Positions 4,350 to 28,024 of a DNA stretch of 28,024 nucleotides are shown here, piece after piece. The position numbers and the translations under genes are program-made. The stretch lies in IMG/VR virus record IMGVR_UViG_3300036853_000087, positions 1 through 28,024 of that record; one strand, 5' to 3'. The notes beneath the pieces were generated by a model. The model did not search any database, had not been told where the DNA came from, and saw only the letters and a program-made list of their open reading frames with translations. Numbering within the stretch: the first letter of the stretch is position 1; every line of letters begins with the position of its first letter. Source of the DNA: a virus.

Positions 4350-4693
4350 TATTCATTTTCCAGGAGGGTAAACCTGTAATATTTTTTTTTCTGATCGATC
4401 AACTCGTAATTGTTTACCGTGAACCTACGACCATCTATAATCCATCGGATCGCCTTCTTATTCGTTATGCTATCAATGGCAATCTGGTACCTGCATACCC
4501 AAACCCAATCAGCATTTATGTTTGTCTCACTGCTATTCAAAGATCGATAACCTCTTGACTTAGTTAAATTACCCCGGCAGGTAAGCAATGTGGCATAATT
4601 ATCTTTAAATCCTGCACCTTGTTGAACTGGTGTATTAATTTGCAGCTGCCCAGAATCACGAAGTTTACCAATGTCGGGATTTCTTATAGCCAT
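4349..4693 (-). CDS. Head closure / head-tail joining protein (SPP1 gp16-like)
   Basis: The protein is a small beta-barrel stopper: KLRDSGQLQINTPVQQGAGF (usual lead R-x-x-I-x-I-Q), then WVWVCRYQIAIDSIT and IRWIIDGRRFTVNNYELID, the typical closing strands. Its length of 114 residues suits the family. It lies in the usual place behind the connector gene. The stop overlaps the next start (TAATG at 4347-4351). Confidence 0.8.
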   Translation of the reverse strand: MAIRNPDIGKLRDSGQLQINTPVQQGAGFKDNYATLLTCRGNLTKSRGYRSLNSSETNINADWVWVCRYQIAIDSITNKKAIRWIIDGRRFTVNNYELIDQKKKYYRFTLLENE

Positions 4694-5280
4694 ACTAACC
4701 TCCGGTGTTTACTCGCAAATAATTCAAGCGCTTGGTCTAATCCCATTTGTCTTTCTTGACCTCCTTTTAAGCTCATCAATGCCTCATCTCCTTTATGCTC
4801 ATAACAATAGCCACATACCCGCTTAAGGTCAAGAATAAGATCTTTCGGCACTTTGGCGGCATCATACCCAGTATTGTAAACAATCTTCCACCGGCCGCCG
4901 CTATATGGTTTAAACTTCTGGAAGCCGCCAGTAATGCCATCCAGCTCGTAGTCGTCATTCGCTGTTTGTATGGTATATACACTATTGCCTGTTTTCAATG
5001 AAGCCGATGTAAGGGACGCCACTGGCCCGTAAGGCAACTCTCTTTCACAATATAAATCAGCGAATAAGGTAATTGTTTTCTCCACCAAGCTAATACAACA
5101 AAATTGCTCAATAGCTGCCCGACATGCTGCAATAAGTTCAGTCAGGTAAACATCATCATCAGAATAGGTGATCTGTAAATGAGCTTTCAATTGAGCTAAA
5201 TTAATTAATTCCGTGGCGCCAGATTCATCAAACTGGCAGTCATGGATATTATTATCAGTATGGCGTGGTAAATAGGTCAT
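4684..5280 (-). CDS. Head-tail connector protein (HK97 gp6-like)
   Basis: The adaptor that joins to the portal after packaging. The segment LINLAQLKAHLQITYSDDDV, then LTELIAACRAAIEQFCCISL, matches the gp6-like connector helices; ELPYGPVASLTSAS and RWKIVYNTGYDAAKVPKDL are further family features. The length of 198 residues is usual. The start overlaps the GT4 gene stop. Its end overlaps the next gene by ten bases. Confidence 0.85.
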   Translation of the reverse strand: MTYLPRHTDNNIHDCQFDESGATELINLAQLKAHLQITYSDDDVYLTELIAACRAAIEQFCCISLVEKTITLFADLYCERELPYGPVASLTSASLKTGNSVYTIQTANDDYELDGITGGFQKFKPYSGGRWKIVYNTGYDAAKVPKDLILDLKRVCGYCYEHKGDEALMSLKGGQERQMGLDQALELFASKHRRLVWL

Positions 5281-6347
5281 AAATACGTAACCCTCCTATG
5301 CTGTTGTTGTGGCCTGCTGGTATTAGCTGCTGTATACAAGAACTTCTCAACCTCCATAAGCCCTTTCTGCGGATCAAGGTCACGGCCCCGGGCTCTGCAC
5401 TTATCACTAACGACCTTGTAATATTTTTTGTCGTTATCCAGCTTTGTTATTTGTTTCACAAGATACGCAATATCGTAAGTATCCCGGTCATCTTTCAATA
5501 TTATCCTATTGGTGTCACGTTCAGGTTCCTCCCTGGCTGGGATATAGATGCCAGCATCAGCACAGTTTTCTTTCAGTCCCTCCGTTGGAGTACATATGAC
5601 AGGTATACCATTACACATCGCCTCTGTGGCAGTCATGCCCCAGCTTTCGTACCTGGAAAGCATAAGTAAAATACGTGTCTGTGCGTACACTTCCAATATG
5701 TTAGGGGTGTTCGGAATAACTTTAACGTTTGGTGGAAAGTTGGATGCCTGGCCGATGTAATGTGGCTCGCTGTAACTGCCCTTAACTGCCAAAAACTTTT
5801 TGTTTGGCATGGCCTCGGCCAGCCGGCGTAGTATAAATCCGCCTTTATTCTCATCCAGGTTTATCAGAGTTATGTATTCATTTTCACGTGGAAACTTACC
5901 TAAATCGAAATAACGGTAGTCAATAGGTGGTGTAAACACCATTGACGGCCATTGGTAATTGAGCTTCTGTTGTATCCATCGGCTATTGTAGAGGCAATAA
6001 TTGTTGCGTCTGGCATTCTGGATGCACTGGTATGGATGCGAATTGTGGATGACGTTGATAATCGGTTTATTGATCGCTTCCGCAATGCCGATGGTATGGT
6101 GTGTGAAGTCAAGGTGCGTTAAGAGCATGTCAGCCCATAAGAACTGATCTGTCGAGCCATTGGGGCCGAAGACTGAAACCCCATCAATGTCGTACGGCAC
6201 CTTAACATTATGCATGATTGCTTGCTGGAGCACTACCCGAACATTATGCCCTTTGCTGACCAGGTACTTGTTGATGTTGTGGGCGTAATATTCGGAGCCG
6301 CAATTGTGGCCGGGTGGATAAAGATGTATATTCCAAAGGAGGTTCAT
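5277..6347 (-). CDS. GT4-type glycosyltransferase
   Basis: The protein has a GT-B plan: N-terminal LYPPGHNCGSEYYAHNINKY (residues 9-28), a donor-domain start at INLDENKGG (162-170), and the GT4 motif RYESWGMTATEAMCNGIPVI (232-251) with the two conserved glutamates (234 and 242). It uses a nucleotide sugar to extend a glycan. It is the last gene of the island; the stop overlaps the start of the head-tail connector gene (ATGA at 5277-5280), so the virion genes and the sugar enzymes are translated together. Confidence 0.88.
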   Translation of the reverse strand: MNLLWNIHLYPPGHNCGSEYYAHNINKYLVSKGHNVRVVLQQAIMHNVKVPYDIDGVSVFGPNGSTDQFLWADMLLTHLDFTHHTIGIAEAINKPIINVIHNSHPYQCIQNARRNNYCLYNSRWIQQKLNYQWPSMVFTPPIDYRYFDLGKFPRENEYITLINLDENKGGFILRRLAEAMPNKKFLAVKGSYSEPHYIGQASNFPPNVKVIPNTPNILEVYAQTRILLMLSRYESWGMTATEAMCNGIPVICTPTEGLKENCADAGIYIPAREEPERDTNRIILKDDRDTYDIAYLVKQITKLDNDKKYYKVVSDKCRARGRDLDPQKGLMEVEKFLYTAANTSRPQQQHRRVTYL

Positions 6348-6351
6348 GCCA

Positions 6352-6603
6352 TTAGTTTTTGATGGTAACAGGGTTTGCCTGAATCCAGTTTCTTTTTTTT
6401 AATTGTATAGTCTTATCTTTCTCAATACCATTCTCTGTCAAGAATGCCATGCCTGTTTTGATATGTAACTTTCTTAATTTAAAGATAGCCACAGTCTCAC
6501 CAGTTCCATTAAAACTTAAAATCTCACCATAATAGGTTTGCCACCCATTAAATGAGCTTTTATGTAAATAAGCTCTATTCCATAATCCTTTATAATGCTC
6601 CAT
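6352..6603 (-). CDS. Small basic hypothetical protein (83 aa)
   Basis: I do not recognise it. The protein is basic with aromatic residues (GLWNRAYLHKSSFNGWQTYY, then AIFKLRKLHIKTGMAFLTE) and looks beta-rich. It sits between two glycosyltransferase genes and overlaps the first. It could be a small partner or accessory of the pathway. Confidence 0.55.
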   Translation of the reverse strand: MEHYKGLWNRAYLHKSSFNGWQTYYGEILSFNGTGETVAIFKLRKLHIKTGMAFLTENGIEKDKTIQLKKRNWIQANPVTIKN

Positions 6604-7396
6604 GTAATTTATTTTCGTAGTTAATCACAGTCCAGTCATCACAATAAATGTCCCGGCCAGTTATATTCGTATACTTCGGACCAAACCAGGGAGATGGTGC
6701 AATTACCCGCTTATCTTTTGCCTCACCCAATATGGCTGCCATGGCGCTGTAGGAGCTATTGCCGATAATGAAGTGGCGGCAGGATTTCATTAGTTTAAAA
6801 TCGTCTATATATGAACTTTCGCCTGAATAAGAAATGGCATATTTATGATCGAATGAATGAAGCATTGCCATAGCAGTATTTGGCTCGTCACTGAAAAGAA
6901 TAAATTTAGTTCCACCAGGCATGCGCTGCATTGCGGCAGAATAGTAATCAATACTTAACCGCGGGTGATAGCCGCCGTCATAATCACCTAGCCTAACATG
7001 TATAGCGCAAACATCCTGCACCCCTGGTTCATCCTTCATCCGCATATAATATTTCACCTCATCAAAGCAATGAGCGAAGTACTTGAACGACTGAAAGTGG
7101 CCTGACAGGTTCCAATTGCCCGGCCCCAGGCGCACATCTTGATACCCCCACTCAACTGGTCGATCACGCCATTGGATACCGGCCGGCATGGCAGGCAAAG
7201 GATTTTTAAAGTATTTCCATACATCAATATCCTCAGAGCTGCCGAAACGCTCTTTATGATCCAGGTTCACCAGAGGCTTGAATACCGGTTGCAGACCGTT
7301 TTTGCGGGCAACACCGATCACGCCGGCTACCTGGAATAACATATTTGCGAATCGACCATAATTACCAATGGATGTCATTGTACAGTAGCCTTTCAT
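6590..7396 (-). CDS. GT11 family alpha-1,2-fucosyltransferase-like protein
   Basis: The protein probably transfers fucose or another deoxy-sugar from a GDP donor. The GT11 signs are GRFANMLFQVAG (residues 14-25, usually G-G-L-G-N-Q-M-F-Q), AIHVRLGDYDGG (131-142), KFILFSDEP (164-172), and MKSCRHFIIGNSSYSAMAA (203-221). It is a full-length small member (268 residues). The ATG at 7394-7396 makes a clean ATGA overlap with the methyltransferase stop, so I prefer it to the ATG at 7414. Its end overlaps the next start by 14 bases. Confidence 0.85.
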   Translation of the reverse strand: MKGYCTMTSIGNYGRFANMLFQVAGVIGVARKNGLQPVFKPLVNLDHKERFGSSEDIDVWKYFKNPLPAMPAGIQWRDRPVEWGYQDVRLGPGNWNLSGHFQSFKYFAHCFDEVKYYMRMKDEPGVQDVCAIHVRLGDYDGGYHPRLSIDYYSAAMQRMPGGTKFILFSDEPNTAMAMLHSFDHKYAISYSGESSYIDDFKLMKSCRHFIIGNSSYSAMAAILGEAKDKRVIAPSPWFGPKYTNITGRDIYCDDWTVINYENKLHGAL

Positions 7397-8019
7397 ACCG
7401 CAACATTTAACCAATTAGTTCTAAAATATTCTCCTGAGTTCTTCAGCCCGTCACCTTTGATCTCAGGGAACAACTTTTTATACTGCTTGTCAACAAAGAC
7501 AAGGTTACCGGTATGGCAAAGCAGGAAGTACCCTTTCTCAATGCCTAGTTTCACCATGGGCAAATAACCCGCCCCGCCCTCCCGATTGAAATGATCGGCA
7601 TCTGGCGGAATGCTGCTGTCGATCTCAATAATAACAACGGCTGGTTTAGATTCCATGGCTTTAAAAATTTGGTAATCGATGCCGTCCACGTCAATGCTTA
7701 ACACGTCGGTTGTTTCATCAATAAAAGCGTTGATATTGGCATCGGAAACAAAAGAACAGATGCTCTTTACATTCTCATTGCCCTGCCAGTTCCTGCAGCA
7801 CTGTTCCCATAAGTCATAATTGGCCTCGATAAACTTTCCGGACCAGCCATTATCGATCAAGAGCGCCGTATTAGAAAGGTATTTACCATTGTGGCCACCG
7901 GTTTCTACGCAGTTGCCTTTTCCGATCTTTATGCGCCTCAATATTTCCTGCAGTAAACCTTCCTCTCCGTTCTGGCTATATACAATGTCTTTTGCGAACT
8001 TATTATAGAACGATAACAT
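7393..8019 (-). CDS. FkbM-like methyltransferase, second type
   Basis: This 208-residue protein is a SAM-dependent methyltransferase: YSQNGEEGLLQEILRRI (residues 14-30), a SAM-site block CVETGGHNGKYLSNTALL (37-54), GKFIEAN (61-67), and VLSIDVDGIDYQIFKAM (106-122). It differs from the other FkbM protein at 10875-11462 in every visible block, so the two probably act on different positions or substrates. Its stop overlaps the fucosyltransferase-like start (ATGA at 7393-7396). Confidence 0.82.
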   Translation of the reverse strand: MLSFYNKFAKDIVYSQNGEEGLLQEILRRIKIGKGNCVETGGHNGKYLSNTALLIDNGWSGKFIEANYDLWEQCCRNWQGNENVKSICSFVSDANINAFIDETTDVLSIDVDGIDYQIFKAMESKPAVVIIEIDSSIPPDADHFNREGGAGYLPMVKLGIEKGYFLLCHTGNLVFVDKQYKKLFPEIKGDGLKNSGEYFRTNWLNVAV

Positions 8020-8303
8020 TATGATGATGTTAGTGGTTTTTCAAATACCTGCTCAACTATCTCGCCATAGCCCTTTTTGGCGGCTACCTCGATGTAGGTT
8101 TGCAGCTTCCATACGCCAGCCTGATCTATATCTGTATTGATCACAGCATATGTTAATGACTGGCCGGAAATTGTTGCAGTCCATTCACCTTTTGTTCCAT
8201 CAGGTTTCTGATAGAGTATTTTGGGATTACTGGCGCCGGTCAGGTCCCGGCCGGTATCCAATGTCAGGGTTAACAGGCCTGAACCTGTATAAAGTATACT
8301 CAT
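8019..8303 (-). CDS. BppU-N-like phage surface protein (94 aa)
   Basis: The sequence LTLDTGRDLTGASNPKILYQ then KPDGTKGEWTATI and AGVWKLQTYIE resembles the immunoglobulin-like N-terminal domain of phage baseplate upper protein (BppU-N). It probably joins a virion surface structure. The stop overlaps the next start in a TAATG arrangement (8017-8021), tying it to the methyltransferase gene downstream. Confidence 0.65.
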   Translation of the reverse strand: MSILYTGSGLLTLTLDTGRDLTGASNPKILYQKPDGTKGEWTATISGQSLTYAVINTDIDQAGVWKLQTYIEVAAKKGYGEIVEQVFEKPLTSS

Positions 8304-8305
8304 GA

Positions 8306-8725
8306 TTATGCAATTGTAAGAACTCCGTTAGTGCCGTCGAAGTCTGTTGTGAATGTTTCACCGGTGGCGAGTGTAATTGATGAACCATAGTCTGCATAGG
8401 CTATCAATTCCTTATTGGTAGCTGTGTCGTTATACAGAACAATATACCGGAACGGCCCTATGCTGCCTCCTGATGCAGTGAATACCACGTCAGCCAATAC
8501 TAGCTTGTAGGTACCTGATGTTTGTGCGGATGACGATATTGTAGCAGCTGTACCGCCGGCAGTATAACCATTACCTGCTGATATTTCCGTAATATCTGTC
8601 TTTACGGTATTAGTAGCTACGGGTGCGGTATTGGTTAGCATGACCTTTAAGCTGTCACTACCCAGGTTATGAACCTTTTCCGCTACAGCCTCTACGAATG
8701 AATTGAATTTACTTAACGTTGCCAT
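8306..8725 (-). CDS. Phage structural protein, small beta-rich (139 aa)
   Basis: The protein begins MATLSKFNSFVEAVAEKVHN, then SLKVMLTNTAPVATNTVKTD and ITEISAGNGYTAGG, and continues with Thr/Ser-rich strands. I recall this pattern as a frequent phage virion protein near fibre genes. It may be a fibre-associated or decoration protein. The gap to its neighbours is two to five bases, so it is co-transcribed with the repeat protein. Confidence 0.7.
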   Translation of the reverse strand: MATLSKFNSFVEAVAEKVHNLGSDSLKVMLTNTAPVATNTVKTDITEISAGNGYTAGGTAATISSSAQTSGTYKLVLADVVFTASGGSIGPFRYIVLYNDTATNKELIAYADYGSSITLATGETFTTDFDGTNGVLTIA

Positions 8726-8730
8726 AGTAA

Positions 8731-10554
8731 TCAGTTTGTTGTTATGATGTTAGAGTTTAATTGTTGCTGATCGTTTATATCAGATTCTGAATCAATAAGA
8801 CTTCCTATGTTAGATGAATTATTAGATGTTATTGAAATATTTGATTGGCCGGCCACCGACCCGTTTATATGGCTTATCAATTGTATAACCTGGTTAGCAT
8901 TGACAGTACTTATGGAGAAGGATACGTCGTTCCCGTTTAATGTATATGAGACCGTGCCTATATTGAAAATCCGAGCTAATAACTGTGCTACATTTTGCCA
9001 CTGAATGATTAAAGGTGCTGTAGATATTGCTAACCTCCTGCCAGTTACTAACTGGGCATTAAGATATGCCAAATCAAACGATGCCTTATTAACAGGCATA
9101 GTTCGGTTAGCCAACAATCCGACTTGGTTTCTTGTAATGGCAAGGGCGAGTGCGTTAATCTGTAAGCTGTAATTTTCAATACTACCGTATAATAATCCTA
9201 TATTATTTAATGATAACGAAAACGTTGCCGGCGAAACCGGGAGCAATCGGTTCGACTTTAGTGCAGCCAGTATAGTGGTTACCGTGAACGATACGGCACT
9301 TACTGGAATTGTTCTAGCAGCCCTTAATCCGGCAGCGACGGTGGTGACAGCAAATGACGCCGGATTGATAGATAATCTGAATCCAAAATTTAGCCCTACA
9401 TTAACTAAGGTTAATGTATAACTGGCCGTCGCCACAGGCAATCTTCGTGTTGCTAATAACCCAATAGGCAATCTGGTAACCGTATAGCTTCCTGTCGTTA
9501 AAGCTATTCTACGCTGAATAGTTAACGCATTACTTTGGTTAGTTAAAGTGTAGGCGGCTGATGTAATAGCCAGTCTTTTGCCAGCTAATAAGCCTACAGA
9601 CTGAGCCGTTGAACTGAGTGCAAGCGGCGATATTGCCGATCTTCTTGCAGCTGATAATCCTACTGAAATATTAGTAAGCGTATAAGCGGCCGGTGATAAT
9701 ACTACCCTATAACCATGTAAAAGATTTAATGTTTTTGGCGTATAAGTGAATGAAGATGTTGATAACGTTAAACTCCTGCCCATTAACAGCCCTACTGCAG
9801 TGTTCGTCTGCGTGAATGAGGCAGTAGTTATTGGCAAAGTGTACGCTCCTGAACTGGCTTCATAGAAAGAAATAATAAACGTGGCTCCCGCGTCACCACC
9901 GAGTGTTGCCTGGTTTTTACTTACGCTTCCGGTTGCAGCGGCACTTGATTGTATCTTGTAGGCATAGGAGCTGCTCATGTCGTTACCTGTAGTATTCCTA
10001 TATTGCGCATCCCCTAAAACACTCCAACCTGTTCCGCTTAGCGTCCCCCATGTATTATCATCTTCGCTAAACCAACCGGCTATTGCCACCGAACTGGCAT
10101 GTGTAGGAGTAACGCCAGTAATTGAAACGGTGAATGGAGTGGACGGCGCTGCATATGAAGCATTAGACAAGGCATTATCCACAGCCCAAGTGTTAGATCC
10201 AGATGTTGGCCTGAAAACATGTCCAACGGTCGTAAAGGCAATGGTGGACCCTCCGGATATAACTTCAAAGTTAGGATCATTGCCATTGTAAGTGGCATTA
10301 TCCCATCTGGCCCAGAATACTCTAACAGCGCAGAGGCTACCAGTATCGTTGAATTGCGTAAGGCTGTTCCATGTTTGTCCAGCCATCTGAGCTTCTGGCT
10401 GCAAGGTGGCATTCCCTCTATAATGTGCTATTACCACCACAAGATCACCGGTAGTTACACCCAATGCAGCAATGGATAGCGCAGAGGTAACACTACCTGC
10501 TTGCGCACCGCCATCGCCTGGCCTACTGGTTGATCCTATGTAGGTAATTGCCAT
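8731..10554 (-). CDS. Repeat-bearing virion surface or fibre-like protein (607 aa)
   Basis: The first 235 residues form a beta-rich domain typical of phage fibre or decoration proteins: MAITYIGSTSRPGDGGAQAG, then VVVIAHYRGNATL, RVFWARWDNATYNGN. From residue 238 to about 548 are 13 tandem 22-residue repeats plus part of a fourteenth, built on R-(R/L)-x-(I/V)-x-x-(A/G)-(S/A)-(Y/F)-T-(L/V)-T-x-x-x-V-G-L-L-(A/T)-x-R. The C-terminal 55 residues are Asn/Ser-rich. The repeats look like a beta-helix or solenoid and hold many Ser and Thr residues that could accept sugar. It is placed amid the glycosyltransferases and methyltransferases, which suggests it may be decorated. Adhesion or host-binding is an inference. 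Confidence 0.8.
   Translation of the reverse strand: MAITYIGSTSRPGDGGAQAGSVTSALSIAALGVTTGDLVVVIAHYRGNATLQPEAQMAGQTWNSLTQFNDTGSLCAVRVFWARWDNATYNGNDPNFEVISGGSTIAFTTVGHVFRPTSGSNTWAVDNALSNASYAAPSTPFTVSITGVTPTHASSVAIAGWFSEDDNTWGTLSGTGWSVLGDAQYRNTTGNDMSSSYAYKIQSSAAATGSVSKNQATLGGDAGATFIISFYEASSGAYTLPITTASFTQTNTAVGLLMGRSLTLSTSSFTYTPKTLNLLHGYRVVLSPAAYTLTNISVGLSAARRSAISPLALSSTAQSVGLLAGKRLAITSAAYTLTNQSNALTIQRRIALTTGSYTVTRLPIGLLATRRLPVATASYTLTLVNVGLNFGFRLSINPASFAVTTVAAGLRAARTIPVSAVSFTVTTILAALKSNRLLPVSPATFSLSLNNIGLLYGSIENYSLQINALALAITRNQVGLLANRTMPVNKASFDLAYLNAQLVTGRRLAISTAPLIIQWQNVAQLLARIFNIGTVSYTLNGNDVSFSISTVNANQVIQLISHINGSVAGQSNISITSNNSSNIGSLIDSESDINDQQQLNSNIITTN
8911..9843 (-). repeat. Tandem 22-residue repeats within the surface protein
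   Basis: Thirteen or so units of about 66 bases encode copies of a motif like R-L-x-I-(S/T)-x-A-(S/A)-Y-T-L-T-x-x-x-V-G-L-L-A-x-R. Copies are diverged at DNA level but keep their aromatic, Thr and Leu-Leu positions, with one 26-residue unit (IENYSLQINALALA onward). Such diverged repeats point to an old expansion under protein-level selection, not recent duplication. Confidence 0.85.
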
Positions 10555-10560
10555 TTATTA

Positions 10561-10863
10561 TTAAAGGCTATTAATTGCTTGTTCAAAGATTGCAGGGTCA
10601 CTATCTAACCCGCCTGAAAAACGATCGCGGTCATGATATGCGAGTTTATCGAGGCGACCATATAGCACAAGCCGGTCTGCTTGAGATAGCTCTGAAATAT
10701 TTTTAACAATTTCCTTCAGCGGGCTTGCTTTTTTTTCATATAATGAAATTTCTTTTTGTTCATCGCCCTCAGGGATTTCAATTTCGTCCCCAATTTTTAA
10801 TCCTTCGTTTGACAATTCTGGGTTATTATCGAAATCCTCCTGTGTTAGAATTTTCTTTTGCAT
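10561..10863 (-). CDS. Acidic hypothetical protein (100 aa)
   Basis: The N-terminus is strongly acidic (LKIGDEIEIPEGDEQKEIS) and leads into a basic, helical middle (KKASPLKEIVKNISELSQAD) and a tail with RDRFSGGLDSD. I do not recognise it. It lies right before the repeat-bearing surface protein, with a gap of six bases, and may be its chaperone or a linker to it. Confidence 0.55.
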   Translation of the reverse strand: MQKKILTQEDFDNNPELSNEGLKIGDEIEIPEGDEQKEISLYEKKASPLKEIVKNISELSQADRLVLYGRLDKLAYHDRDRFSGGLDSDPAIFEQAINSL

Positions 10864-10874
10864 TGTAATGTTTT

Positions 10875-11462
10875 TTATGAATGATTAATAAGTTGCCAGT
10901 TTTCCCAGCAATATGGGTATTGCCAGGTTAATGAATGAGTTTTCCTTAGTTTATCTGCGATCTCCTTGTACCATATTTCGTATGGCAGCCCCTCGATCTG
11001 ATGGAACTGAACCTGAATGTTTTTGATCCGGGTATGCAGGCCGGCGCCAATGATGTGGCTGAGTATATCATACTCTGCGCCCTCGATGTTTATTTTCAGT
11101 AGGTCAATAATAGGCCACCTATTAATGATATTGTTTACATCTACACACTCGTACTCATGATCTCCTTGCTCGAAAGTGCTGGTGTAATAAGCACGACCAC
11201 CGAAAGACATTTTGCCGTTGTGGGTACCGGCTGCTTTATTAATGATTGTCCCATACTTGTAATCTCTAATATATTCTGTTGGCTCAATCACTATCGGACA
11301 GACCATGTAACGATTAAACATTTCAGTAGCCCACTCACCATAATAGGCTCCCAGGTCAATGACAACACTTTCAGGCGTAAGTTCATACTCATATCGCAGT
11401 CGTTCGAGGCGCTGATCTTGCCAGGTGGTCAATGATTCTGGGTGGAGGGATATTTTACTCAT
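10875..11462 (-). CDS. FkbM-family methyltransferase
   Basis: The protein has the SAM-binding motif VVIDLGAYYGEW (residues 33-44), IVIEPTEYI (57-65) and the FkbM hallmark LLKINIEGAEYDIL (121-134). FkbM enzymes O-methylate sugars or small molecules. The length of 195 residues is short but within the range of small members. The start ATG at 11460-11462 overlaps the membrane protein stop. The likely job is to cap or methylate a sugar laid down by the glycosyltransferases nearby. Confidence 0.85.
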   Translation of the reverse strand: MSKISLHPESLTTWQDQRLERLRYEYELTPESVVIDLGAYYGEWATEMFNRYMVCPIVIEPTEYIRDYKYGTIINKAAGTHNGKMSFGGRAYYTSTFEQGDHEYECVDVNNIINRWPIIDLLKINIEGAEYDILSHIIGAGLHTRIKNIQVQFHQIEGLPYEIWYKEIADKLRKTHSLTWQYPYCWENWQLINHS

Positions 11463-11782
11463 TGGTAATTATTTCTTATTTCTTCAAAATAAATTACGCC
11501 TGCATTGGCACGTCTAATATTCCACCCCAGCTTACTGTGCCATGTATACTCAAGCCAATAACTACCGTGATAGCTATAAACAGATACTTCGGACTCTTTA
11601 TTCATCCAATAGGATACAATTTTTTTCTGTCCAGTTATCAATGTAATATTGAATGTTCTTAGTACTTTTGGATCTCCACTTTCCTTTCCTCCAAAATATA
11701 ACAATGCGCCGATTCCGCTCATGAATATGGCGGAAAAAATTATTACTAACAAAACTTCCAAATTTCTCTTTACCCAATTCAT
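11459..11782 (-). CDS. Single-pass membrane protein (107 aa)
   Basis: A short basic N-terminus (MNWVKRNLE) leads into a hydrophobic helix (VLLVIIFSAIFMSGIGALLY, about residues 10-30). The rest, about 75 residues, has mixed strands (TFNITLITGQKKIVSYW, SVYSYHGSYWLEYTWHS). The orientation is probably N-in, C-out, or the helix is an uncleaved signal anchor. I do not recognise the family. It lies between the GT-A-like gene and an FkbM-type gene with ATGA-type overlaps, so it may serve the sugar pathway, for example as a flippase-like partner, or stand apart as a superinfection factor. Confidence 0.6.
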   Translation of the reverse strand: MNWVKRNLEVLLVIIFSAIFMSGIGALLYFGGKESGDPKVLRTFNITLITGQKKIVSYWMNKESEVSVYSYHGSYWLEYTWHSKLGWNIRRANAGVIYFEEIRNNYQ

Positions 11783-12573
11783 ACGAACGAATATTTTGAT
11801 TTGAAATACTTTTGCATATGCCGGTTAAGGTCATCGGTTGCGGTAAAGTCGTTGTTTCTAAGTCGATGGTGATGAAATAAAACAGGGTAGGTATCATTAA
11901 AACCGGTTTTCTCATAGGTAAAGTGCCCGGCGTTATACATGGCGGGCCACCAATGTAAGGGGGTTATTCGCTCCCTGTAGGCTAATGCCGTGAGTATGGC
12001 CTGATCGTGCCGATGTTCTTGGAACTCAGGATGATTAGGCAATTTACTGGAGCTATCATCAATTAATCCTGGGGCCGTACACAATAATAACCATTCTTTG
12101 ACAAATACCCTTGCGCTTTGCGAATTGCGAATAATTATGACACTGGCCTGCACTTGACTGCCATAGTTAGCAAAAGGGTCATTCCTCCAATTGTCATTTA
12201 TTGCCAAAATAACATCCGCCTTACACCAATGAACATGCTGAAACTTATTGCCAAACAGCCAGATATCCCCGGCCATCCGATCAATAATATGGTTCACGTT
12301 GTTGATAATCTCTACACCGGCATCGCAATAAATCAGGTAGTCGCCGTCCTTCATCTTCTTCAGTTCCTGATCGATGAAATAAGGTTTCCAAAGCCAATAC
12401 CCGCAGCCGCGTGGTTGATCCAGGATAGCTTTATTCATTTTCGCGAACTTGACATCAATGTCCTTCAGTCGGTATATCTTCGCCTCATGCACATTGTTCT
12501 GTAATGCACTCGCTTTGCAGATATCCGCGGCCATAGTCATGTTGTCGTCTGTGAAGGTGATGAGGCGGGTCAT
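11779..12573 (-). CDS. GT-A-like glycosyltransferase
   Basis: The 264-residue protein resembles GT-A enzymes: an N-terminal strand (RLITFTDDNM), then GCGYWLWKPYFI (residues 56-67), the acidic motif DYLIYCDAGVEI (78-89), GSQVQASVIIIRN, and RHDQAILTALAY (188-199) near the end. The pattern GYWLWKP-x-x-I plus D-A-G and H-D-Q is that of small sugar transferases from capsule and LPS regions. The acceptor is unknown. It sits between a helical protein and a membrane protein in the sugar-modification island; the ends of both neighbours overlap it. Confidence 0.7.
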   Translation of the reverse strand: MTRLITFTDDNMTMAADICKASALQNNVHEAKIYRLKDIDVKFAKMNKAILDQPRGCGYWLWKPYFIDQELKKMKDGDYLIYCDAGVEIINNVNHIIDRMAGDIWLFGNKFQHVHWCKADVILAINDNWRNDPFANYGSQVQASVIIIRNSQSARVFVKEWLLLCTAPGLIDDSSSKLPNHPEFQEHRHDQAILTALAYRERITPLHWWPAMYNAGHFTYEKTGFNDTYPVLFHHHRLRNNDFTATDDLNRHMQKYFKSKYSFV

Positions 12574-12851
12574 TAGCCAATATTAATTTTGCTTTCTATT
12601 TTTTGAATTGGCGGGTGCCCGTTTACTATGGTGGTTATAATACTTATACTCTCAACCCTTAAACCCGGGTAATTGCGTTGATACTCGAAAATTGTTTTTG
12701 CTATATTTGCCTCCATTTCAGCTTTATCGGCCAGGGCTTTCTCGATTGTATTCATTTTACTATCGTTTGAATTTGATAAGAAATCTTGTTCTGCCTGAGA
12801 TTTTCGCAACTTATATTGGGGGTTATCAAATATGCTAAAATCGCTTTTCAT
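12573..12851 (-). CDS. Helical hypothetical protein (92 aa)
   Basis: The protein is helical with a charged middle (MNTIEKALADKAEMEANIAK) and a strand-rich end (RVESISIITTIVNGHPPIQK). I do not recognise it. It could be a small chaperone or coiled-coil partner. The TAATG junction with the glycosyltransferase gene below (12571-12575) suggests coupled translation. Confidence 0.55.
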   Translation of the reverse strand: MKSDFSIFDNPQYKLRKSQAEQDFLSNSNDSKMNTIEKALADKAEMEANIAKTIFEYQRNYPGLRVESISIITTIVNGHPPIQKIESKINIG

Positions 12852-13171
12852 TGGTTAGCCTCCCCATTTTTATCTAACGTGAACAATGCCATTGGTGGCA
12901 GGCCATTGGCTATGGTCTTTACATAGATCGGCTCGCCGCGGTTAAGTGCTTCCAAGTCTTCTTTATTTGGCTTCCATGCCGTCAGGAAGAAATGGAACTT
13001 GTCCGCATCAATGCTATCATAAACAGCAGGTGGAACCGATGCAGCGCCATCTTTGAACACTTGCTTTAGACCTTGCAGACCACATTTGGCCCAAATGCTG
13101 GTGCATTGTTCGTCCGTCATATCTTCGGGCTTTTCGATCTCATGGGCGCCCTCAAAATTTACTGGCATCAT
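12848..13171 (-). CDS. Phage hypothetical protein (107 aa), MMPVNFEGA type
   Basis: The sequence starts MMPVNFEGAHEIEKPEDMTD and continues with FHFFLTAWKPNKEDLEALNR, then GEPIYVKTIANGLPPMALFT. I recall this as a common small phage protein, seen near tail or host-recognition genes and without a proven role. It looks like a compact alpha-beta protein. Its stop overlaps the next start (ATGA at 12848-12851). Confidence 0.65.
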   Translation of the reverse strand: MMPVNFEGAHEIEKPEDMTDEQCTSIWAKCGLQGLKQVFKDGAASVPPAVYDSIDADKFHFFLTAWKPNKEDLEALNRGEPIYVKTIANGLPPMALFTLDKNGEANQ

Positions 13172-13343
13172 GTTTCTTATTATTAATAGTATCCTTTACA
13201 AACCAAAATGCAACCCAACCTAGCCTTATTTCAAATGACCATGATCGCCTGATTGTAGTGAAAGGTGGATCTACAATGAACATAATTCCAATCCCGCAAA
13301 ACTTACTTGTTGTATAAAGACAATATGGCCTCTGCTTCTTCAT
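13152..13343 (-). CDS. Small phage hypothetical protein (63 aa)
   Basis: The run IVDPPFTTIRRSWSFEIRLG followed by WVAFWFVKD is a pattern I recall from small phage proteins of Bacteroidota with no known role. The middle is aromatic and basic. The ATG overlaps the GT25-like stop (ATGA at 13340-13343), and its end overlaps the next start by 20 bases. Confidence 0.6.
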   Translation of the reverse strand: MKKQRPYCLYTTSKFCGIGIMFIVDPPFTTIRRSWSFEIRLGWVAFWFVKDTINNKKHDASKF

Positions 13344-13936
13344 ACAAGTTTCATTTGACTTTCCTTAAATATGTTCTCATAGTTCACCACTTCATTCCAT
13401 ATAGCCGATTTACGGGGCCGCTGGTAAGCCAGAAAGGGCTTGCATACATAAGCCTTCCAGTTGGGTAGCTGACCGGCCAACCAGTTATCATACATCTGTT
13501 CGCTTTCTCCCGGGTGGTTGTCCAGGATAAACTTAACGATCGGCTTCCGGTACACTACTGCATGGGTAGTCCAGCAATCACTCACCCGGTAAATGTGCTG
13601 ACTGATACGCTGCGGCTTTTCATCACGAATATTGGCACCCAGGTAGAATATATCAAAGTCTTTCGGCAGCTCACGCAGCACCTTCGACATAAGATGCAGA
13701 TCGCGAAACTCACAATCATCTTCAAGGAAAAGCAACGTATGGTCTTTACTTTCAAAGAACTCTTTTAGGATTTGATAGGTAGAAAGATTAAATGATTGAT
13801 GAGGCCCTATTGATGGAATAGCCTGGAATGGCCTTGCCTTCAACCCAACTGCGTTAAACTCGGCCTCTGCATATGTCCATTCGTCGCCGCCGAGGGTGAG
13901 GCAAGTAATACGGTCGAAGAAGTTCCAGTTATTCAT
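13340..13936 (-). CDS. GT25-like glycosyltransferase
   Basis: The protein probably transfers a sugar to a glycan or protein. The GT25 signs are DRITCLTLGG at the N-terminus (usually D-K-I-x-x-I-x-L), the acidic motif LLFLEDDCEF (residues 68-77), DIFYLGANI (95-103), and THAVVYRKPIVKFIL (124-138) followed by MYDNWLAG (148-155). The start at the second ATG (13934-13936) is supported by AAGGAGG at 13943-13949 with six-base spacing, as seen in two accessory genes. It is the first gene of the sugar-modification island behind the capsid gene and overlaps the gene upstream. Confidence 0.8.
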   Translation of the reverse strand: MNNWNFFDRITCLTLGGDEWTYAEAEFNAVGLKARPFQAIPSIGPHQSFNLSTYQILKEFFESKDHTLLFLEDDCEFRDLHLMSKVLRELPKDFDIFYLGANIRDEKPQRISQHIYRVSDCWTTHAVVYRKPIVKFILDNHPGESEQMYDNWLAGQLPNWKAYVCKPFLAYQRPRKSAIWNEVVNYENIFKESQMKLV

Positions 13937-14288: not shown

Positions 14289-15527
14289 CTATGTTGTACC
14301 AGCGCCAAAGTAGGTGAACGCATCAAGACGCAGTTGAGCCAGGGCCACACGGGCTTCAGCTTTCACTGTAATCAGGTTACGTTGTACGTTGTCGCTGTCT
14401 TGCTCGTACATGTTTACATTTAACCCTTCGGTTTGAATGATGGCCGCTTTTGTCCAGTCACCGATCAATACCCTGTTTGCGCCGATGTAGGTGTCTTTCA
14501 CCTTGATTACCGGAATGCCCAGGATGTTTACATCACCGTTGGCGGCAACAGTTACTGCGTTACCAGCAGGCAAACTGTAATCGTTTGGTTTTGTCAACAG
14601 GATTTTCGCCCACACTTGGTTGGTGGCTACGATACCATTAGGATCGTAATCATCATCCCCCATGTTTGCAATAGCCTGAATGATCTTTTCAACTGTTACT
14701 GTGCTGGTGAGGTTTGAAGTGTTGCCAGTTGCAGCGCCGGCCACTTGCATGAAGAATTTCAGGTCTTCTGTGCGCAGGTAGTCCTCCACGAGCTCATTCG
14801 ATACGAAGGTTTGCATGAATGGCAAATCCTGGAGCATCTGTTTGGCAATGCGAACAAAGCCAGCCAGATAATCAACGGTCACGGTTACTTCAGTGAAGTC
14901 GTAATCCAATTGGTTTTTAACGGCGGCATGTGTGGTCTGAAAGTCAAAAGAGCCTTCACCTACAGGTTTATTCTGGCGGTAAAACTTCCAAAGACCGGTA
15001 GCCGATGGGATCACGTTCACCAGGTCGCGGAAATGGACTTTCTGGCGGCCACGTAAAGCGGGCTGTGAGGCATATGTTGCTTGAACGCTACCTGTAAGGT
15101 TAGCAGAAGCTGTCATGTTACCAACAGATTTCACCTTGAACTTGTGTTCAGCTTTGGGCTCATTCGCCTGCTCTTTGATCTTATCAAAGTTTTCGGCAAA
15201 ACCGGCTTTTAGCAGGTTCTTAGTGCTTTCTTCTTCCTGGCCATCCGGTGTATAAACACGGCCACGACGGGCCTTAAACTCCTGCAGTTCGTCCTGCAAT
15301 TGCTTTACAGTGGCACCTTTGGCGGCAATGTCGGTATTGATTTCCTCAACTTTTGTGTTCAGGTCATCAATCCACTTCTTTGCTTCGGCGTGTTTTTCTT
15401 CGAGTTCTTTGGATGTGAGCGCCTTTTCGGCGAGGGCCTTAACCTCATCGAGGTCTTTTTTGCTTTTTGTTTTGAACTTCCCGAAGTCGTCTACGAGACT
15501 TTCGAGAACTTCTAATTCGTCTGCCAT
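14289..15527 (-). CDS. Major capsid protein (HK97 fold)
   Basis: This is the shell protein. The first 100 or so residues form a charged coiled coil (KKDLDEVKALAEKALTSKEL and KQLQDELQEFKARR), the delta or scaffolding domain normally cut off by the protease. The fold follows with FRDLVNVIPSATGLWKFYRQ, then DYDFTEVTVTVDYLAGFVRI, AKQMLQDLPFMQTFVSNEL, and a C-terminal strand set including GIPVIKVKDTYIG and VLIGDWTKAAII. The length of 412 residues is normal. The gene follows the protease by 23 bases and is followed by a hairpin that could end its transcript. Confidence 0.95.
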   Translation of the reverse strand: MADELEVLESLVDDFGKFKTKSKKDLDEVKALAEKALTSKELEEKHAEAKKWIDDLNTKVEEINTDIAAKGATVKQLQDELQEFKARRGRVYTPDGQEEESTKNLLKAGFAENFDKIKEQANEPKAEHKFKVKSVGNMTASANLTGSVQATYASQPALRGRQKVHFRDLVNVIPSATGLWKFYRQNKPVGEGSFDFQTTHAAVKNQLDYDFTEVTVTVDYLAGFVRIAKQMLQDLPFMQTFVSNELVEDYLRTEDLKFFMQVAGAATGNTSNLTSTVTVEKIIQAIANMGDDDYDPNGIVATNQVWAKILLTKPNDYSLPAGNAVTVAANGDVNILGIPVIKVKDTYIGANRVLIGDWTKAAIIQTEGLNVNMYEQDSDNVQRNLITVKAEARVALAQLRLDAFTYFGAGTT

Positions 15528-25989: not shown

Positions 25990-26537
25990 GAGTTGATAAT
26001 TGAGGGTGTATAATCGATCTTATCTGACCATGCGATGATCTGGCCGGTGAATACCTGCCGTTTATTCTTCGGATGGACATTGAACCAATCTTCAAAGTCC
26101 CTGCAATCAAGTCCGTCATTGGCAGCTACTTCACAAAGTGGTAGTAGTCGCATCTGAATGCCTCGGATTTCTGGTAGGCCAATACTAACCCCGACGCCGC
26201 GTGTCCATATCTCAATATCCCACACCCTCTTTATCTCCACCTGCGCGAACTCGATCTGCTTGCTTCGGTACGGTGCCCCTGACCAGATCCGCAGGCTGGC
26301 CATGTCACCGGCTTTCCAGCGGGAGCCTGCACGGATGGTGGTATGTTTTTGCCTCTCATTGGCGATAAGCTGGAAGTCATTGACATAATCCCTCGCAGCG
26401 GGCATAATATCGTCAAGGTTGAGCTTATCATCGGGAGTGCGCAAGATTGCATTAAGAATACTTTCGACGAACCAGGTCGGCTGTGATGCCTTCGGGTGGC
26501 CTTTGGGGAAGTGGTGGCTAAAAGTTAATATCTTCAT
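25986..26537 (-). CDS. ASCH/PUA-like domain protein
   Basis: This 183-residue protein has a central block HTTIRAGSRWKAGD followed by RIWSGAPYRSKQ and a beta-rich stretch, then DGLDCRDFEDWF and FTGQIIAWSD near the end. This pattern resembles ASCH/PUA-like proteins of phages, which often bind RNA or modified nucleotides. The match is by memory of motif order only. It overlaps the nuclease-like gene upstream and joins the next gene by an ATGA overlap at 25986-25989. A role in nucleic-acid metabolism fits the neighbours. Confidence 0.6.
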   Translation of the reverse strand: MKILTFSHHFPKGHPKASQPTWFVESILNAILRTPDDKLNLDDIMPAARDYVNDFQLIANERQKHTTIRAGSRWKAGDMASLRIWSGAPYRSKQIEFAQVEIKRVWDIEIWTRGVGVSIGLPEIRGIQMRLLPLCEVAANDGLDCRDFEDWFNVHPKNKRQVFTGQIIAWSDKIDYTPSIINS

Positions 26538-27021
26538 AATCTTCTTTTTTTAATTCTAAAGTGAATGCAGCCCGGTATTCATCGCCTGTTATTTCTTTAT
26601 CCAGCAGCTTTTGCCGCCAGATGTTTCGCCAACGGTAATACATTTTATTAGCCAGCATCTGCCAGTTATTAAACCTGCGATCATGCAGGCGGCGGGGCTT
26701 TTTCTCAATACTCACATGGCCGGTTTCCCATACATAGATCAGGCCGTACCGTTTATCCACCTCGTCTTTTTTTATCAGGTCTTTAGGGCAGACATAGTAG
26801 AAGTAGTTCGCGCCTTTGTCAGACCGGTGCTTTTCTTTCTTCGCATCGCTGAAGTAGTCGGACCTACTGATCTTTATTTCAAACTCCTTCGCCGTGCCGC
26901 CTACATCCAGCGCCCAGTAATCCGATTCCCAGCCATAAATAAAAGCATTGGGCACCTGGTAGGGATATTCCCGGTTGTCAATCCATCGGGTCAATTCTTT
27001 GATAATTGATTGCTCGGTCAT
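26518..27021 (-). CDS. MmcB-like / PD-(D/E)XK nuclease-like protein
   Basis: The 167-residue protein has WESDYWALDV (residues 31-40), then EFEIKISRSDYFSDAKKEKH starting near residue 46. The Asp39, Glu48, Lys50 layout followed by S-R-x-D-(Y/F)-x-x-D fits PD-(D/E)XK proteins of the MmcB kind. The FYYVCPKDLI strand (from residue 74) also fits that fold. A DNA-repair or nuclease role is therefore likely but not proven. The C-terminal third (KMYYRWRNIWRQKLL) is basic and aromatic and may bind nucleic acid. It follows the VRR-NUC gene by ten bases and overlaps the next gene by 20 bases, so it belongs to the same transcript. Confidence 0.6.
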   Translation of the reverse strand: MTEQSIIKELTRWIDNREYPYQVPNAFIYGWESDYWALDVGGTAKEFEIKISRSDYFSDAKKEKHRSDKGANYFYYVCPKDLIKKDEVDKRYGLIYVWETGHVSIEKKPRRLHDRRFNNWQMLANKMYYRWRNIWRQKLLDKEITGDEYRAAFTLELKKEDYEDINF

Positions 27022-27031
27022 AGTTACTTTT

Positions 27032-27361
27032 TTACTTGGTTACCTCCCACTCCTTCAACTCCATGTTATTACCCACCTGACAGGCCACGTACGCCTCTCC
27101 ACCGGTTTTCTTTATGTCGTTAAGGAATTTTATCTGATCGGGTGAAAAGACGTCCTTAATGGTTTTCACTTCGCATACAACCCAGCGCCCGTCTTTGGTG
27201 ATGCCAATAATGTCCGGCACCCCTCGCCGGCCAATGAACTTGCGGCCGCGAACCGCGATGTTGTTCTGGATCCAGACATCGTAGCCCCGCCAGGTAAGTT
27301 CCTTCAAGGCTGATTGGCGGATGATGTCTTTGCTGAGGGTTATGGTTGGTTTAACTGCCAT
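27032..27361 (-). CDS. VRR-NUC / Holliday-resolvase-like PD-(D/E)XK nuclease
   Basis: This 109-residue protein has the layout of small PD-(D/E)XK nucleases of the VRR-NUC group: RRGVPDIIG with Asp50, then VVCEVKT with Glu64 and Lys66, then SPDQIKFL with Gln76. These match the metal-binding and catalytic positions of the family. The likely role is cutting branched or damaged phage DNA during replication, recombination or packaging. The ATG at 27359-27361 overlaps the end of the methyltransferase gene, so the two are probably co-translated. A restriction role paired with the methyltransferase cannot be excluded, but lone resolvase-like nucleases are common in phages. Confidence 0.8.
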   Translation of the reverse strand: MAVKPTITLSKDIIRQSALKELTWRGYDVWIQNNIAVRGRKFIGRRGVPDIIGITKDGRWVVCEVKTIKDVFSPDQIKFLNDIKKTGGEAYVACQVGNNMELKEWEVTK

Positions 27362-28024
27362 TGTTCAATCGCTTTGAAGATTTGATAAACCAATTGGGGT
27401 ACAACTGCATTACCCAACGCCTTTATGCTTTCTCTTCGCCATCTTGGAAAGGTAATATCAGCCAGTCTGCTGGATAACCCATCATCTCCGCCACAAACAG
27501 GGGATTGAGTTGGGAAGTCTTGCCAGCTGTAAATGCCATCAAATCGTTCAATGATTGATTGTGATCGCCCCCTGTTCGATTCGTCATGCCTGATCTGTAA
27601 TCCGAAAGGCTTGGCGTCGGTAATAATCCCCTCTGTAATAATTCCCCTAACGTCATCCCAAACCCGTTCCCGCTGTAGTTTGTTCCGTTCTTCCCGTTGT
27701 TCCTCGCTTTCATTCTCTTTCTTCGGGCATCGATCTTGTTTAATTCCGTTGTGCTGGCCGAATCCACCACTGTTGGCGTGGGCAATAAACCATATCCGAT
27801 CTCGTCTGTGGGGAGCGTTGACACCTGCAGCTGGAAGTAAAAACGAGAGCACTTCGTAGCCTTCAGCTTCCAGGTCAGCTTGCACCTCGTCGAATACCAG
27901 CCCTCCATTCCAATTAGTAAGCCCGCGAACGTTCTCACCCACAACCCATTCCGGTTGAATTTCCCGAATTGCTCTAAGCATTTCCGGCCACAGGTGGCGG
28001 TCATCTTCTTTACCTTTTCGCTTC
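27340..28024 (-). CDS. DNA (cytosine-5) methyltransferase, C-terminal part (N-terminus beyond window)
   Basis: The protein transfers a methyl group from S-adenosylmethionine to C5 of cytosine in DNA, probably to protect or mark phage DNA. The frame is open from the right edge: before the first in-window ATG (27981) it reads KRKGKEDDRHLWPE, so the true start and the catalytic PCQ motif lie outside. Seen here are the ENV motif in VVGENVRGL, the RRDRIWFIA block (motif VIII) and the C-terminal ALGNAVVPQ block (motif X). About 227 residues are visible. The stretch between motifs VIII and X, normally target-recognition sequence, is low in recognisable features and also encodes a second frame (27423-28004). 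The gene ends inside the start of the downstream nuclease-like gene, overlapping it by 22 bases. The target sequence cannot be told from this fragment. Confidence 0.93.
   Translation of the reverse strand, partial: KRKGKEDDRHLWPEMLRAIREIQPEWVVGENVRGLTNWNGGLVFDEVQADLEAEGYEVLSFLLPAAGVNAPHRRDRIWFIAHANSGGFGQHNGIKQDRCPKKENESEEQREERNKLQRERVWDDVRGIITEGIITDAKPFGLQIRHDESNRGRSQSIIERFDGIYSWQDFPTQSPVCGGDDGLSSRLADITFPRWRRESIKALGNAVVPQLVYQIFKAIEQWQLNQP
27423..28004 (-). CDS. Alternate-frame ORF inside the methyltransferase gene, LLPTP-type phage protein
   Basis: This 193-residue frame lies wholly within the cytosine methyltransferase gene in another frame. It does not look like a random shadow. It carries GLLPTPTVVDS and later GLLPTPSLSDY, then ends with LNPLFVAEMMGYPADW and ILPF. 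I recall the LPTP-x-x-D and LNP-F-MMG-P-W blocks, and its MTATCGRKCLE start, from proteins listed as methylase-like or hypothetical in phages of gut and soil Bacteroidota. The ATG at 28002-28004 follows an AAGG-containing purine run. The frame is also open up to the window edge. Possible explanations are a true overlapping gene, a product made by frameshifting from the methyltransferase, or a conserved by-product of methyltransferase codons. No function can be assigned. Confidence 0.5.
   Translation of the reverse strand: MTATCGRKCLEQFGKFNRNGLWVRTFAGLLIGMEGWYSTRCKLTWKLKATKCSRFYFQLQVSTLPTDEIGYGLLPTPTVVDSASTTELNKIDARRKRMKARNNGKNGTNYSGNGFGMTLGELLQRGLLPTPSLSDYRSGMTNRTGGDHNQSLNDLMAFTAGKTSQLNPLFVAEMMGYPADWLILPFQDGEEKA

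What the first reader, a model, noticed from the sequence alone, without database searches (positions are those of the whole stretch)
5277..13936. Sugar-modification island inside the virion operon, between the capsid gene and the head-tail connectors
Seen: GT25-like, GT-A-like, GT11-like and GT4-type proteins, two different FkbM-type methyltransferases, a one-helix membrane protein and small unknown genes interleaved with three probable virion surface proteins, all on one strand and coupled by ATGA or TAATG overlaps. In HK97-type phages the connector genes usually follow the capsid gene closely. Here about 9 kb of sugar-enzyme genes lie between. Known: some viruses (for example chlorovirus PBCV-1) glycosylate their own capsid with virus-coded enzymes and methylated sugars. 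Inference: this phage builds a multi-sugar, O-methylated glycan on its capsid or fibre, or changes the host envelope during late infection. The late-operon position, timed with virion assembly, favours virion decoration.
Basis: partly seen in the sequence, partly recalled or inferred. Interest (0 to 1): 0.8.

Follow-up and report, generated by a model that had tools for sequence, protein, structure and literature searches.

The report
Phage capsid-glycosylation gene cassette
This phage carries, next to its capsid gene, a conserved set of up to six enzymes that very probably builds a methylated sugar chain on its own particle; related and unrelated uncultured phages share the set, and mycobacteriophages with a similar gene arrangement are known to coat their capsids with sugars.

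Summary
Six intact sugar enzymes (GT25-like, a GT-A-fold transferase, two FkbM-type methyltransferases, GT11, GT4) lie on one strand between the capsid gene (MCP) and the head-tail adaptor (HTA), mostly in overlapping reading frames. Comparison shows this is a conserved cassette, not a random island. Of 53 related contigs with both MCP and HTA in view, 36 carry at least four of the enzymes between them, always in the same order; ten have an empty site; several carry different transferase and methyltransferase genes in the same slot. A second phage lineage (MCP 27% identical) has the cassette split around its protease-MCP pair, with a GDP-fucose-synthase-type gene beside GT11 in some contigs. 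Trees show exchange between capsid lineages. The three 'virion surface' genes are an insertion seen only in this window. The nearest precedent is the Corndog mycobacteriophage group (O-methyltransferase plus three transferases between portal and capsid), where capsid and tail-tube glycosylation has been shown. Best reading: the cassette builds an O-methylated oligosaccharide on virion protein, the GT25-like enzyme perhaps adding the first sugar. Acceptor, sugars and benefit are untested. New variant of a known kind.

The parts
14289..15527 (-). Major capsid protein (HK97 type), upstream flank of the cassette and possible acceptor
   Evidence: phrog_10 E 6e-34
13340..13936 (-). GT25-like glycosyltransferase, candidate first (protein-linked) sugar transferase
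   Evidence: AF2 pLDDT 91; COLGALT1 Foldseek E about 1e-10, VIA Z 19.9, rmsd 3.5, 183 aligned; profile's best PDB sequence match is procollagen galactosyltransferase 1, E 0.03; E82 and D84 of the EDD motif invariant in 27 sequences
13152..13343 (-). small unknown gene, not part of the conserved core
12848..13171 (-). small unknown gene, shared only with close relatives L003, L004 and L009
12573..12851 (-). small unknown gene, partly shared with L009
11779..12573 (-). GT-A-fold glycosyltransferase (GT6/GT8-like fold, family unassigned)
   Evidence: AF2 pLDDT 90; BoGT6a Z 14.3, bovine alpha-1,3-GalT Z 13.9, PBCV-1 capsid transferase 2p6w Z 13.8, tied; D84, G86, E88, D190, Q191 invariant
11459..11782 (-). 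one-helix membrane protein, not in relatives
   Evidence: hydropathy 2.65 at residue 10; no homologue at this place
10875..11462 (-). FkbM-family methyltransferase 1
   Evidence: PF05050 31.3 bits; D36, G38, K123, E127, G128, E130 invariant
10561..10863 (-). small acidic protein, about 48-49% identical to short stretches in L026 and L044
8731..10554 (-). 607-residue protein with 22-residue repeats, probable virion surface fibre; insertion in the cassette
   Evidence: repeat period 22; no homologue in 14 related records, although that search had no positive control
8306..8725 (-). phrog_644 protein (unknown function, probable virion surface); part of the insertion
   Evidence: E 2e-19; one weak match, elsewhere in the record of L035
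8019..8303 (-). weakly minor-tail-like protein; part of the insertion
   Evidence: phrog_17345 E 0.006
7393..8019 (-). FkbM-like methyltransferase 2
   Evidence: PF05050 19.4 bits, under the cut-off; E39, G41, D110, D112 invariant in 26 sequences
6590..7396 (-). GT11 (fucosyltransferase family) glycosyltransferase
   Evidence: PF01531 E 2e-11; HxRxGD residues invariant; in lineage 2 beside an NAD-dependent epimerase of GDP-fucose-synthase type
6352..6603 (-). small unknown gene between GT11 and GT4
5277..6347 (-). GT4 glycosyltransferase, last cassette gene, overlaps HTA by ATGA
   Evidence: PF00534 E 2e-13; phrog_26352 E 8e-51; both E residues of the EX7E motif invariant
4684..5280 (-). Head-tail adaptor, downstream flank of the cassette
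   Evidence: phrog_442 E 1e-16

Best explanation
A virion-glycosylation cassette. During late expression the phage makes four soluble glycosyltransferases and two SAM-dependent sugar O-methyltransferases together with its head proteins. In the host cytoplasm they build a short, branched or linear, O-methylated oligosaccharide directly on a virion protein, most likely the major capsid and/or tail-tube protein. The GT25-like enzyme (COLGALT1-like fold) is the best candidate for adding the first sugar to a side chain. The GT-A-fold, GT11 (probably L-fucose) and GT4 enzymes then extend it, and the FkbM-type enzymes cap hydroxyls. Shown: gene content, order and position, conservation of catalytic residues, purifying selection, block and single-gene exchange between phage lineages. 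Inferred: acceptor, sugars, order of transfer, benefit.
For: Order GT25-GTA-(FkbM1)-(FkbM2)-GT11-GT4 between MCP and HTA in 36 of 53 contigs with both flanks in view. Lineage 2, with MCP about 27% identical, keeps the enzymes beside protease-MCP, and GT4 between MCP and HTA. Other transferase/methyltransferase genes fill the same slot: L011 (GT2-like, TOD1/MUCI70-like, Methyltransf_11), L092 (methyltransferase, GT2, epimerase, GT4) and L097 (methyltransferase, GT4), Streptomyces phage TurkishDelight gp20. Empty-site relatives exist. Corndog group: an O-methyltransferase and three transferases, one of them GT25 by Pfam, between portal and protease-capsid in Firecracker, with experimentally reported virion glycosylation (PMC12363180; PMC11600133). 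Fold of the GT25-like enzyme. PBCV-1 A064R unites two transferases and a sugar methyltransferase acting on a capsid glycan (PMC7019647).
Against: No acceptor site or glycan mass was measured. Late co-expression would also allow action on host envelope precursors. The sequence match of the GT25-like enzyme to the Firecracker GT25 is weak (hhalign probability 24%, E 8e-4). FkbM1 is missing in many relatives and both FkbM genes in one clade of MCP relatives (such as L102-L113), so methylation by FkbM enzymes is not a universal part. No isolate carries the full set.
Confidence: 0.8

Rival explanations
1. The enzymes remodel the host cell envelope (LPS core, capsule or glycoprotein glycans) late in infection, for example to block superinfection or to stop progeny from binding debris; the place beside the capsid gene only provides late expression.
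For: GT25, GT4 and GT11 families include LPS and capsule enzymes (established knowledge). T4-like cyanophages carry GT11 and related genes in large sugar clusters away from the capsid genes.
Against: No Bac_transf (PF02397) or GtrA (PF04138) gene in 15 records, with working controls. None of the six enzymes has a strongly hydrophobic segment. The position is always inside the head module, in two capsid lineages and with unrelated enzyme sets. Only one of 15 records holds an integrase match, and no close homologue of the GT25-like enzyme was found in bacterial genomes, so lysogenic conversion is unlikely. The many incomplete contigs and the host's own carrier genes leave room.
Confidence: 0.13
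2. The transferases glycosylate hypermodified bases in phage DNA, as in T4-like or TET-bearing phages.
For: Phage DNA glycosyltransferases exist and are varied (Pyle 2024, cited in PMC12619734). The window has a DNA cytosine methyltransferase-like gene at 27340-27981.
Against: No thymidylate-synthase-type base hydroxymethylase in 15 records, with working control. No Tet_JBP match either, although that control was silent. Sugar O-methyltransferases and placement among head genes are not expected.
Confidence: 0.04
3. The island is a chance collection of cargo genes (morons) in a permissive gap, without a joint function.
For: Small unknown genes, homing-endonuclease-like genes and an RNA-ligase-like gene come and go between the enzymes.
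Against: Order of the enzymes is fixed in 36 contigs while the small genes change. Low dN against near-saturated dS for every enzyme. Invariant catalytic residues.
Confidence: 0.02

Closest known systems
Corndog-group (cluster O) mycobacteriophage glycosylation genes, with Che8 and Myrna (Freeman 2023, as cited in PMC12363180, PMC11600133, PMC11256854)
   Same: Phage-coded transferases plus an O-methyltransferase between portal and capsid protease-MCP (Firecracker gp33-gp36); one enzyme is GT25 by Pfam; virion glycosylation reported by experiment.
   Different: Different methyltransferase family (TylF, not FkbM); no GT11 or GT4 found among gp33-gp36; different phage group; sequence link of the GT25 enzymes is weak.
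Chlorovirus PBCV-1 major-capsid glycosylation (A064R and others)
   Same: Virus-coded transferases and a sugar 2-O-methyltransferase modify the major capsid protein; the GT-A enzyme here shares the fold of the PBCV-1 capsid transferase 2p6w (Z 13.8, tied with GT6 enzymes).
   Different: A064R is one protein with three domains, here separate genes; eukaryotic virus with another capsid type.
Cyanophage and T4-like sugar gene clusters (P-TIM68, S-SM2, ACG-2014f)
   Same: GT11 at about 32% identity, with a GT-A homologue in P-TIM68 and a GT25-type neighbour in S-SM2.
   Different: Large clusters with nucleotide-sugar synthesis genes, among metabolic genes in the stretches viewed; function unproven.
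Human COLGALT1 (GT25 procollagen galactosyltransferase)
   Same: Closest fold and best PDB sequence-profile hit of the GT25-like enzyme.
   Different: 20% identity over one domain; human enzyme acts on collagen hydroxylysine; phage acceptor unknown.

Membership tests
Phage virion-glycosylation cassette (Corndog type) | several transferase genes inside the head module beside MCP | tested here: met
   precedent
Phage virion-glycosylation cassette (Corndog type) | accompanying sugar O-methyltransferase | tested here: met
   two FkbM-type genes in the window; absent in part of the relatives. That they act on sugar oxygen is inferred from the family.
Phage virion-glycosylation cassette (Corndog type) | homologous GT25 enzyme | tested here: inconclusive
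   Firecracker gp36 is PF01755 at 24.5 bits; hhalign to A6 probability 24%, E 8e-4
Phage virion-glycosylation cassette (Corndog type) | glycan on MCP or tail tube by mass spectrometry | not testable with these tools
   needs virions
GT4 (PF00534) | Pfam score over cut-off and EX7E motif | tested here: met
   50.5 bits, cut-off 26.4; motif residues invariant
GT11 (PF01531) | Pfam score over cut-off and HxRxGD motif | tested here: met
   44.1 bits, cut-off 23.9
GT25 (PF01755) | Pfam score over cut-off | tested here: not met
   no Pfam match for the window protein; fold COLGALT1-like, so called GT25-like only
FkbM methyltransferase (PF05050), gene at 10875 | Pfam score over cut-off | tested here: met
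   31.3 bits, cut-off 22.7
FkbM methyltransferase (PF05050), gene at 7393 | Pfam score over cut-off | tested here: not met
   19.4 bits; called FkbM-like
GT6 or GT8 | sequence family match for the gene at 11779 | tested here: not met
   no Pfam match at E 1; GT6 and GT8 structures lie within about 1 Z of each other
O-antigen modification by phage (GtrABC type) | GtrA flippase | tested here: not met
   0 of 15 records, controls ring; records are incomplete
DNA hypermodification system | thymidylate-synthase-type base hydroxymethylase | tested here: not met
   0 of 15 records, controls ring; records are incomplete
DNA hypermodification system | TET/JBP dioxygenase | tested here: inconclusive
   0 of 15 records but control silent

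The most novel reading that the evidence does not exclude
A widespread group of uncultured phages, known only from metagenomes and probably infecting Bacteroidota in part, carries a transferable pathway that coats the capsid with an O-methylated, fucose-containing oligosaccharide. The pathway passes between unrelated capsid lineages as a block and by single-enzyme swaps while staying next to the capsid gene, so capsid glycan type would be an exchangeable trait like an O-antigen serotype.
Probability: 0.5. Interest if true: 0.78.

Novelty: new variant of a known kind. Interest (0 to 1): 0.64.

Why it matters
Virion glycosylation in tailed phages is shown, as far as the literature held here goes, only for a few mycobacteriophages. 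This cassette extends the likely phenomenon to at least two further phage lineages with a defined, conserved enzyme set, and gives natural empty-site relatives (MCP then HTA, no enzymes) for comparison. It makes testable what the coat is for (shielding from host proteases or surface binding, particle stability, avoidance of adsorption to debris) and how capsid glycan types are exchanged. The GT25-like enzyme is a possible small phage relative of collagen-type protein galactosyltransferases.

Tried and rejected
1) Treating all 16 genes between MCP and HTA as one unit: rejected, because only the six enzymes recur; the small genes and 8019-10554 do not. The empty answer for the 607-residue protein had no positive control, so absence elsewhere in those incomplete records is not proved. 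2) Bacterial origin of the GT25-like enzyme: one genome-contig scan gave only 25-37% matches; no prophage or host cluster found. 3) Solved structures by sequence for FkbM1, FkbM2, GT11 and the 607-residue protein: no match. 4) Same cassette in isolate phages: the GT25-like enzyme has one distant hit, FkbM2 none, GT4 only TurkishDelight, GT11 and GTA only in cyanophages and other marine or uncultured phages. Closest isolate MCPs (Flavobacterium phage 11b, Cellulophaga phage phi10:1) lack annotated transferases between MCP and connector. 5) Corndog's own record was not held, so Firecracker of the same group was used; Freeman 2023 and Pyle 2024 were not held, so their results are taken from citing papers. 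6) dS is near saturation between window and relatives, so omega values are only indicative.
Full report
OBSERVATION. The window is a whole IMG/VR record of 28,024 bases. Nearly all genes run on the minus strand in the order TerL, portal, MuF, protease, MCP, then the island, then HTA, neck, major tail, tape measure. Between the MCP stop (14289) and the HTA start (5280) lie 9.0 kb. Starts shared with relatives place GT25 at 13340-13936 and GT11 at 6590-7396. Junctions are tight: six ATGA (4-nt) and two TAATG (1-nt) overlaps.

WHAT THE TWO UNNAMED TRANSFERASES ARE. The GT25-like protein gave a confident model (pLDDT 91) whose best matches are human COLGALT1, a protein (hydroxylysine) galactosyltransferase: Foldseek E about 1e-10, VIA Z 19.9 over 183 residues at rmsd 3.5, followed by mimivirus R655 (Z 16.2). 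Its sequence profile also ranks procollagen galactosyltransferase 1 first in the PDB, though weakly (E 0.03). The GTA protein (pLDDT 90) has a GT-A fold; GT6 enzymes (BoGT6a, Z 14.3), the PBCV-1 capsid transferase 2p6w (Z 13.8) and glycogenins (Z 13.2) lie close together, so its family is left open.

CONSERVATION. A scan with MCP found relatives. In L004, L007, L009 and L010 the six enzymes lie in the same order between MCP and HTA, at 73-92% identity to the window in the three close ones, comparable with MCP (76-94%) and HTA (72-81%). Scans with FkbM2, GT25 and GT4 alignments and an MCP profile, mapped by tblastn and HMMs, gave 53 contigs besides the window with both MCP and HTA in view. Thirty-six have at least four cassette enzymes between them, always in the order GT25, GTA, (FkbM1), (FkbM2), GT11, GT4. 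Two of lineage 2 have the other enzymes upstream of MCP and GT4 downstream. Ten have no cassette enzyme and a gap of 237-1148 nt. Four have GT4 only. One (L011) has an unrelated set. Some of these contigs are near-copies from different samples and the 80 loci kept were the best of 499, so the fractions are not a census.

SAME SLOT, OTHER ENZYMES. L011 (MCP 34% identical) has a GT2-like protein, a TOD1/MUCI70-like protein, a Methyltransf_11 protein and a further protein without Pfam match between MCP and HTA. L092 has a methyltransferase, a GT2 protein, a sugar epimerase and GT4; L097 a methyltransferase and GT4. Some contigs that lack the FkbM genes carry a roughly 190-residue protein of unassigned family between GTA and GT11. 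Streptomyces phage TurkishDelight has a double-GT4 gene between MCP and its tail genes. So sugar-transfer genes are placed in this slot repeatedly.

LINEAGE 2. L031-L039 and L042 have a different structural set (MCP 26-27% identical where compared; phrog_10 MCP, phrog_442 HTA and phrog_80 protease in L035). Order there: portal, MuF, GT25, GTA, (FkbM1), FkbM2, GT11, protease, MCP, GT4, HTA, with parts missing where contigs end. L036-L039 add an NAD-dependent epimerase of GDP-fucose-synthase type beside GT11, which suggests that GT11 uses GDP-fucose. That name rests on family and neighbourhood, not on a test.

EXCHANGE AND SELECTION. Lineage-2 enzymes are 42-58% identical to the window's (GT4 34-40%), although MCP is only 26-27%; L044 has GTA 80% and GT11 78% with MCP 44%. 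Trees agree: in GTA, the window with L004, L007, L009, L021, L023, L025 and L044 forms a starred clade (100/100) that shuts out L010 and L080, which are nearer by MCP; in GT25, L021, L023, L025, L027, L030 and L044 join lineage 2 (97/98). Some rows have long branches, so single placements are less sure. dN is 0.04-0.19 with dS above 1 or saturated for all six enzymes, as for MCP and neighbours.

MECHANISM. The most likely reading is cytoplasmic, late, direct glycosylation of a virion protein, extended by the other transferases and capped by methylation. Support comes from position, from fold, and above all from precedent: Firecracker of the Corndog group has O-methyltransferase gp33, gp34, gp35 (annotated polypeptide GalNAc transferase) and gp36 (GT25 by Pfam) between portal and protease-capsid. 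Papers citing Freeman 2023 state that Corndog gp38 and Che8 gp110 are essential for capsid glycosylation (PMC12363180) and that three tandem transferases and an O-methyltransferase in cluster O modify capsid and tail tube (PMC11600133). PBCV-1 A064R joins two rhamnosyltransferases and a 2-O-methyltransferase acting on its capsid glycan (PMC7019647).

RIVALS. Host-envelope remodelling cannot be excluded but gets no support from lipid-carrier, flippase or integrase genes or from bacterial homologues. DNA glycosylation is unlikely without a base hydroxymethylase (the TET search had no ringing control). Random cargo is contradicted by order, selection and intact motifs.

HOST. TerL is nearest to Bacteroides and Parabacteroides phages (37-38%) and MCP to Flavobacterium and Cellulophaga phages (33-35%), so a Bacteroidota host is likely for the window; the host of lineage 2 is unknown.

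VERDICT. A real, conserved and probably functional virion-glycosylation cassette: a known kind of system in a new enzymatic variant and new phage groups.

Noticed in passing
window 8731-10554: 607-residue protein with a run of 22-residue repeats over about 300 residues; no match in the PDB by sequence and only noise in Pfam; looks like a head or tail surface fibre inserted into the cassette.
   Followed up: partly
L096 11237-13155: Two large proteins (406 and 228 residues) without Pfam or PHROG match sit between MCP and the GT25-like gene, again possible surface proteins beside a cassette.
   Followed up: partly
L004 11256-12317; L005 4738-5289; L010 5146-5685; L008 6116-6631; L035 7803-8393: Proteins resembling GIY-YIG or HNH homing endonucleases (read by eye) are scattered between cassette enzymes and may drive the exchange of single genes.
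   Followed up: no
L007 12197-12763: An RNA-ligase-like protein (PF17720) inside the cassette.
   Followed up: no
L056 2395-12831: A sugar cluster of about a dozen genes (GT25-like 32%, GT11, FkbM-like and others) in a 56-kb record, apparently beside large surface or fibre genes; a separate phage type.
   Followed up: partly
L109 8388-8954; L121 11416-11982; L137 7527-8150; L035 9442-10008: A set of similar-looking proteins of about 190 residues between GTA and GT11 or FkbM2, methyltransferase-like by eye but without Pfam match where scanned, seems to stand in for the FkbM genes.
   Followed up: partly
G003 37362-37805 (record of L009): Integrase-like match (PF00589) in one cassette-bearing relative, suggesting that some of these phages may be temperate.
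   Followed up: no
window 26518-27981: DNA cytosine methyltransferase-like gene with neighbouring endonuclease or Holliday-junction-like genes at the upstream end of the record.
   Followed up: no
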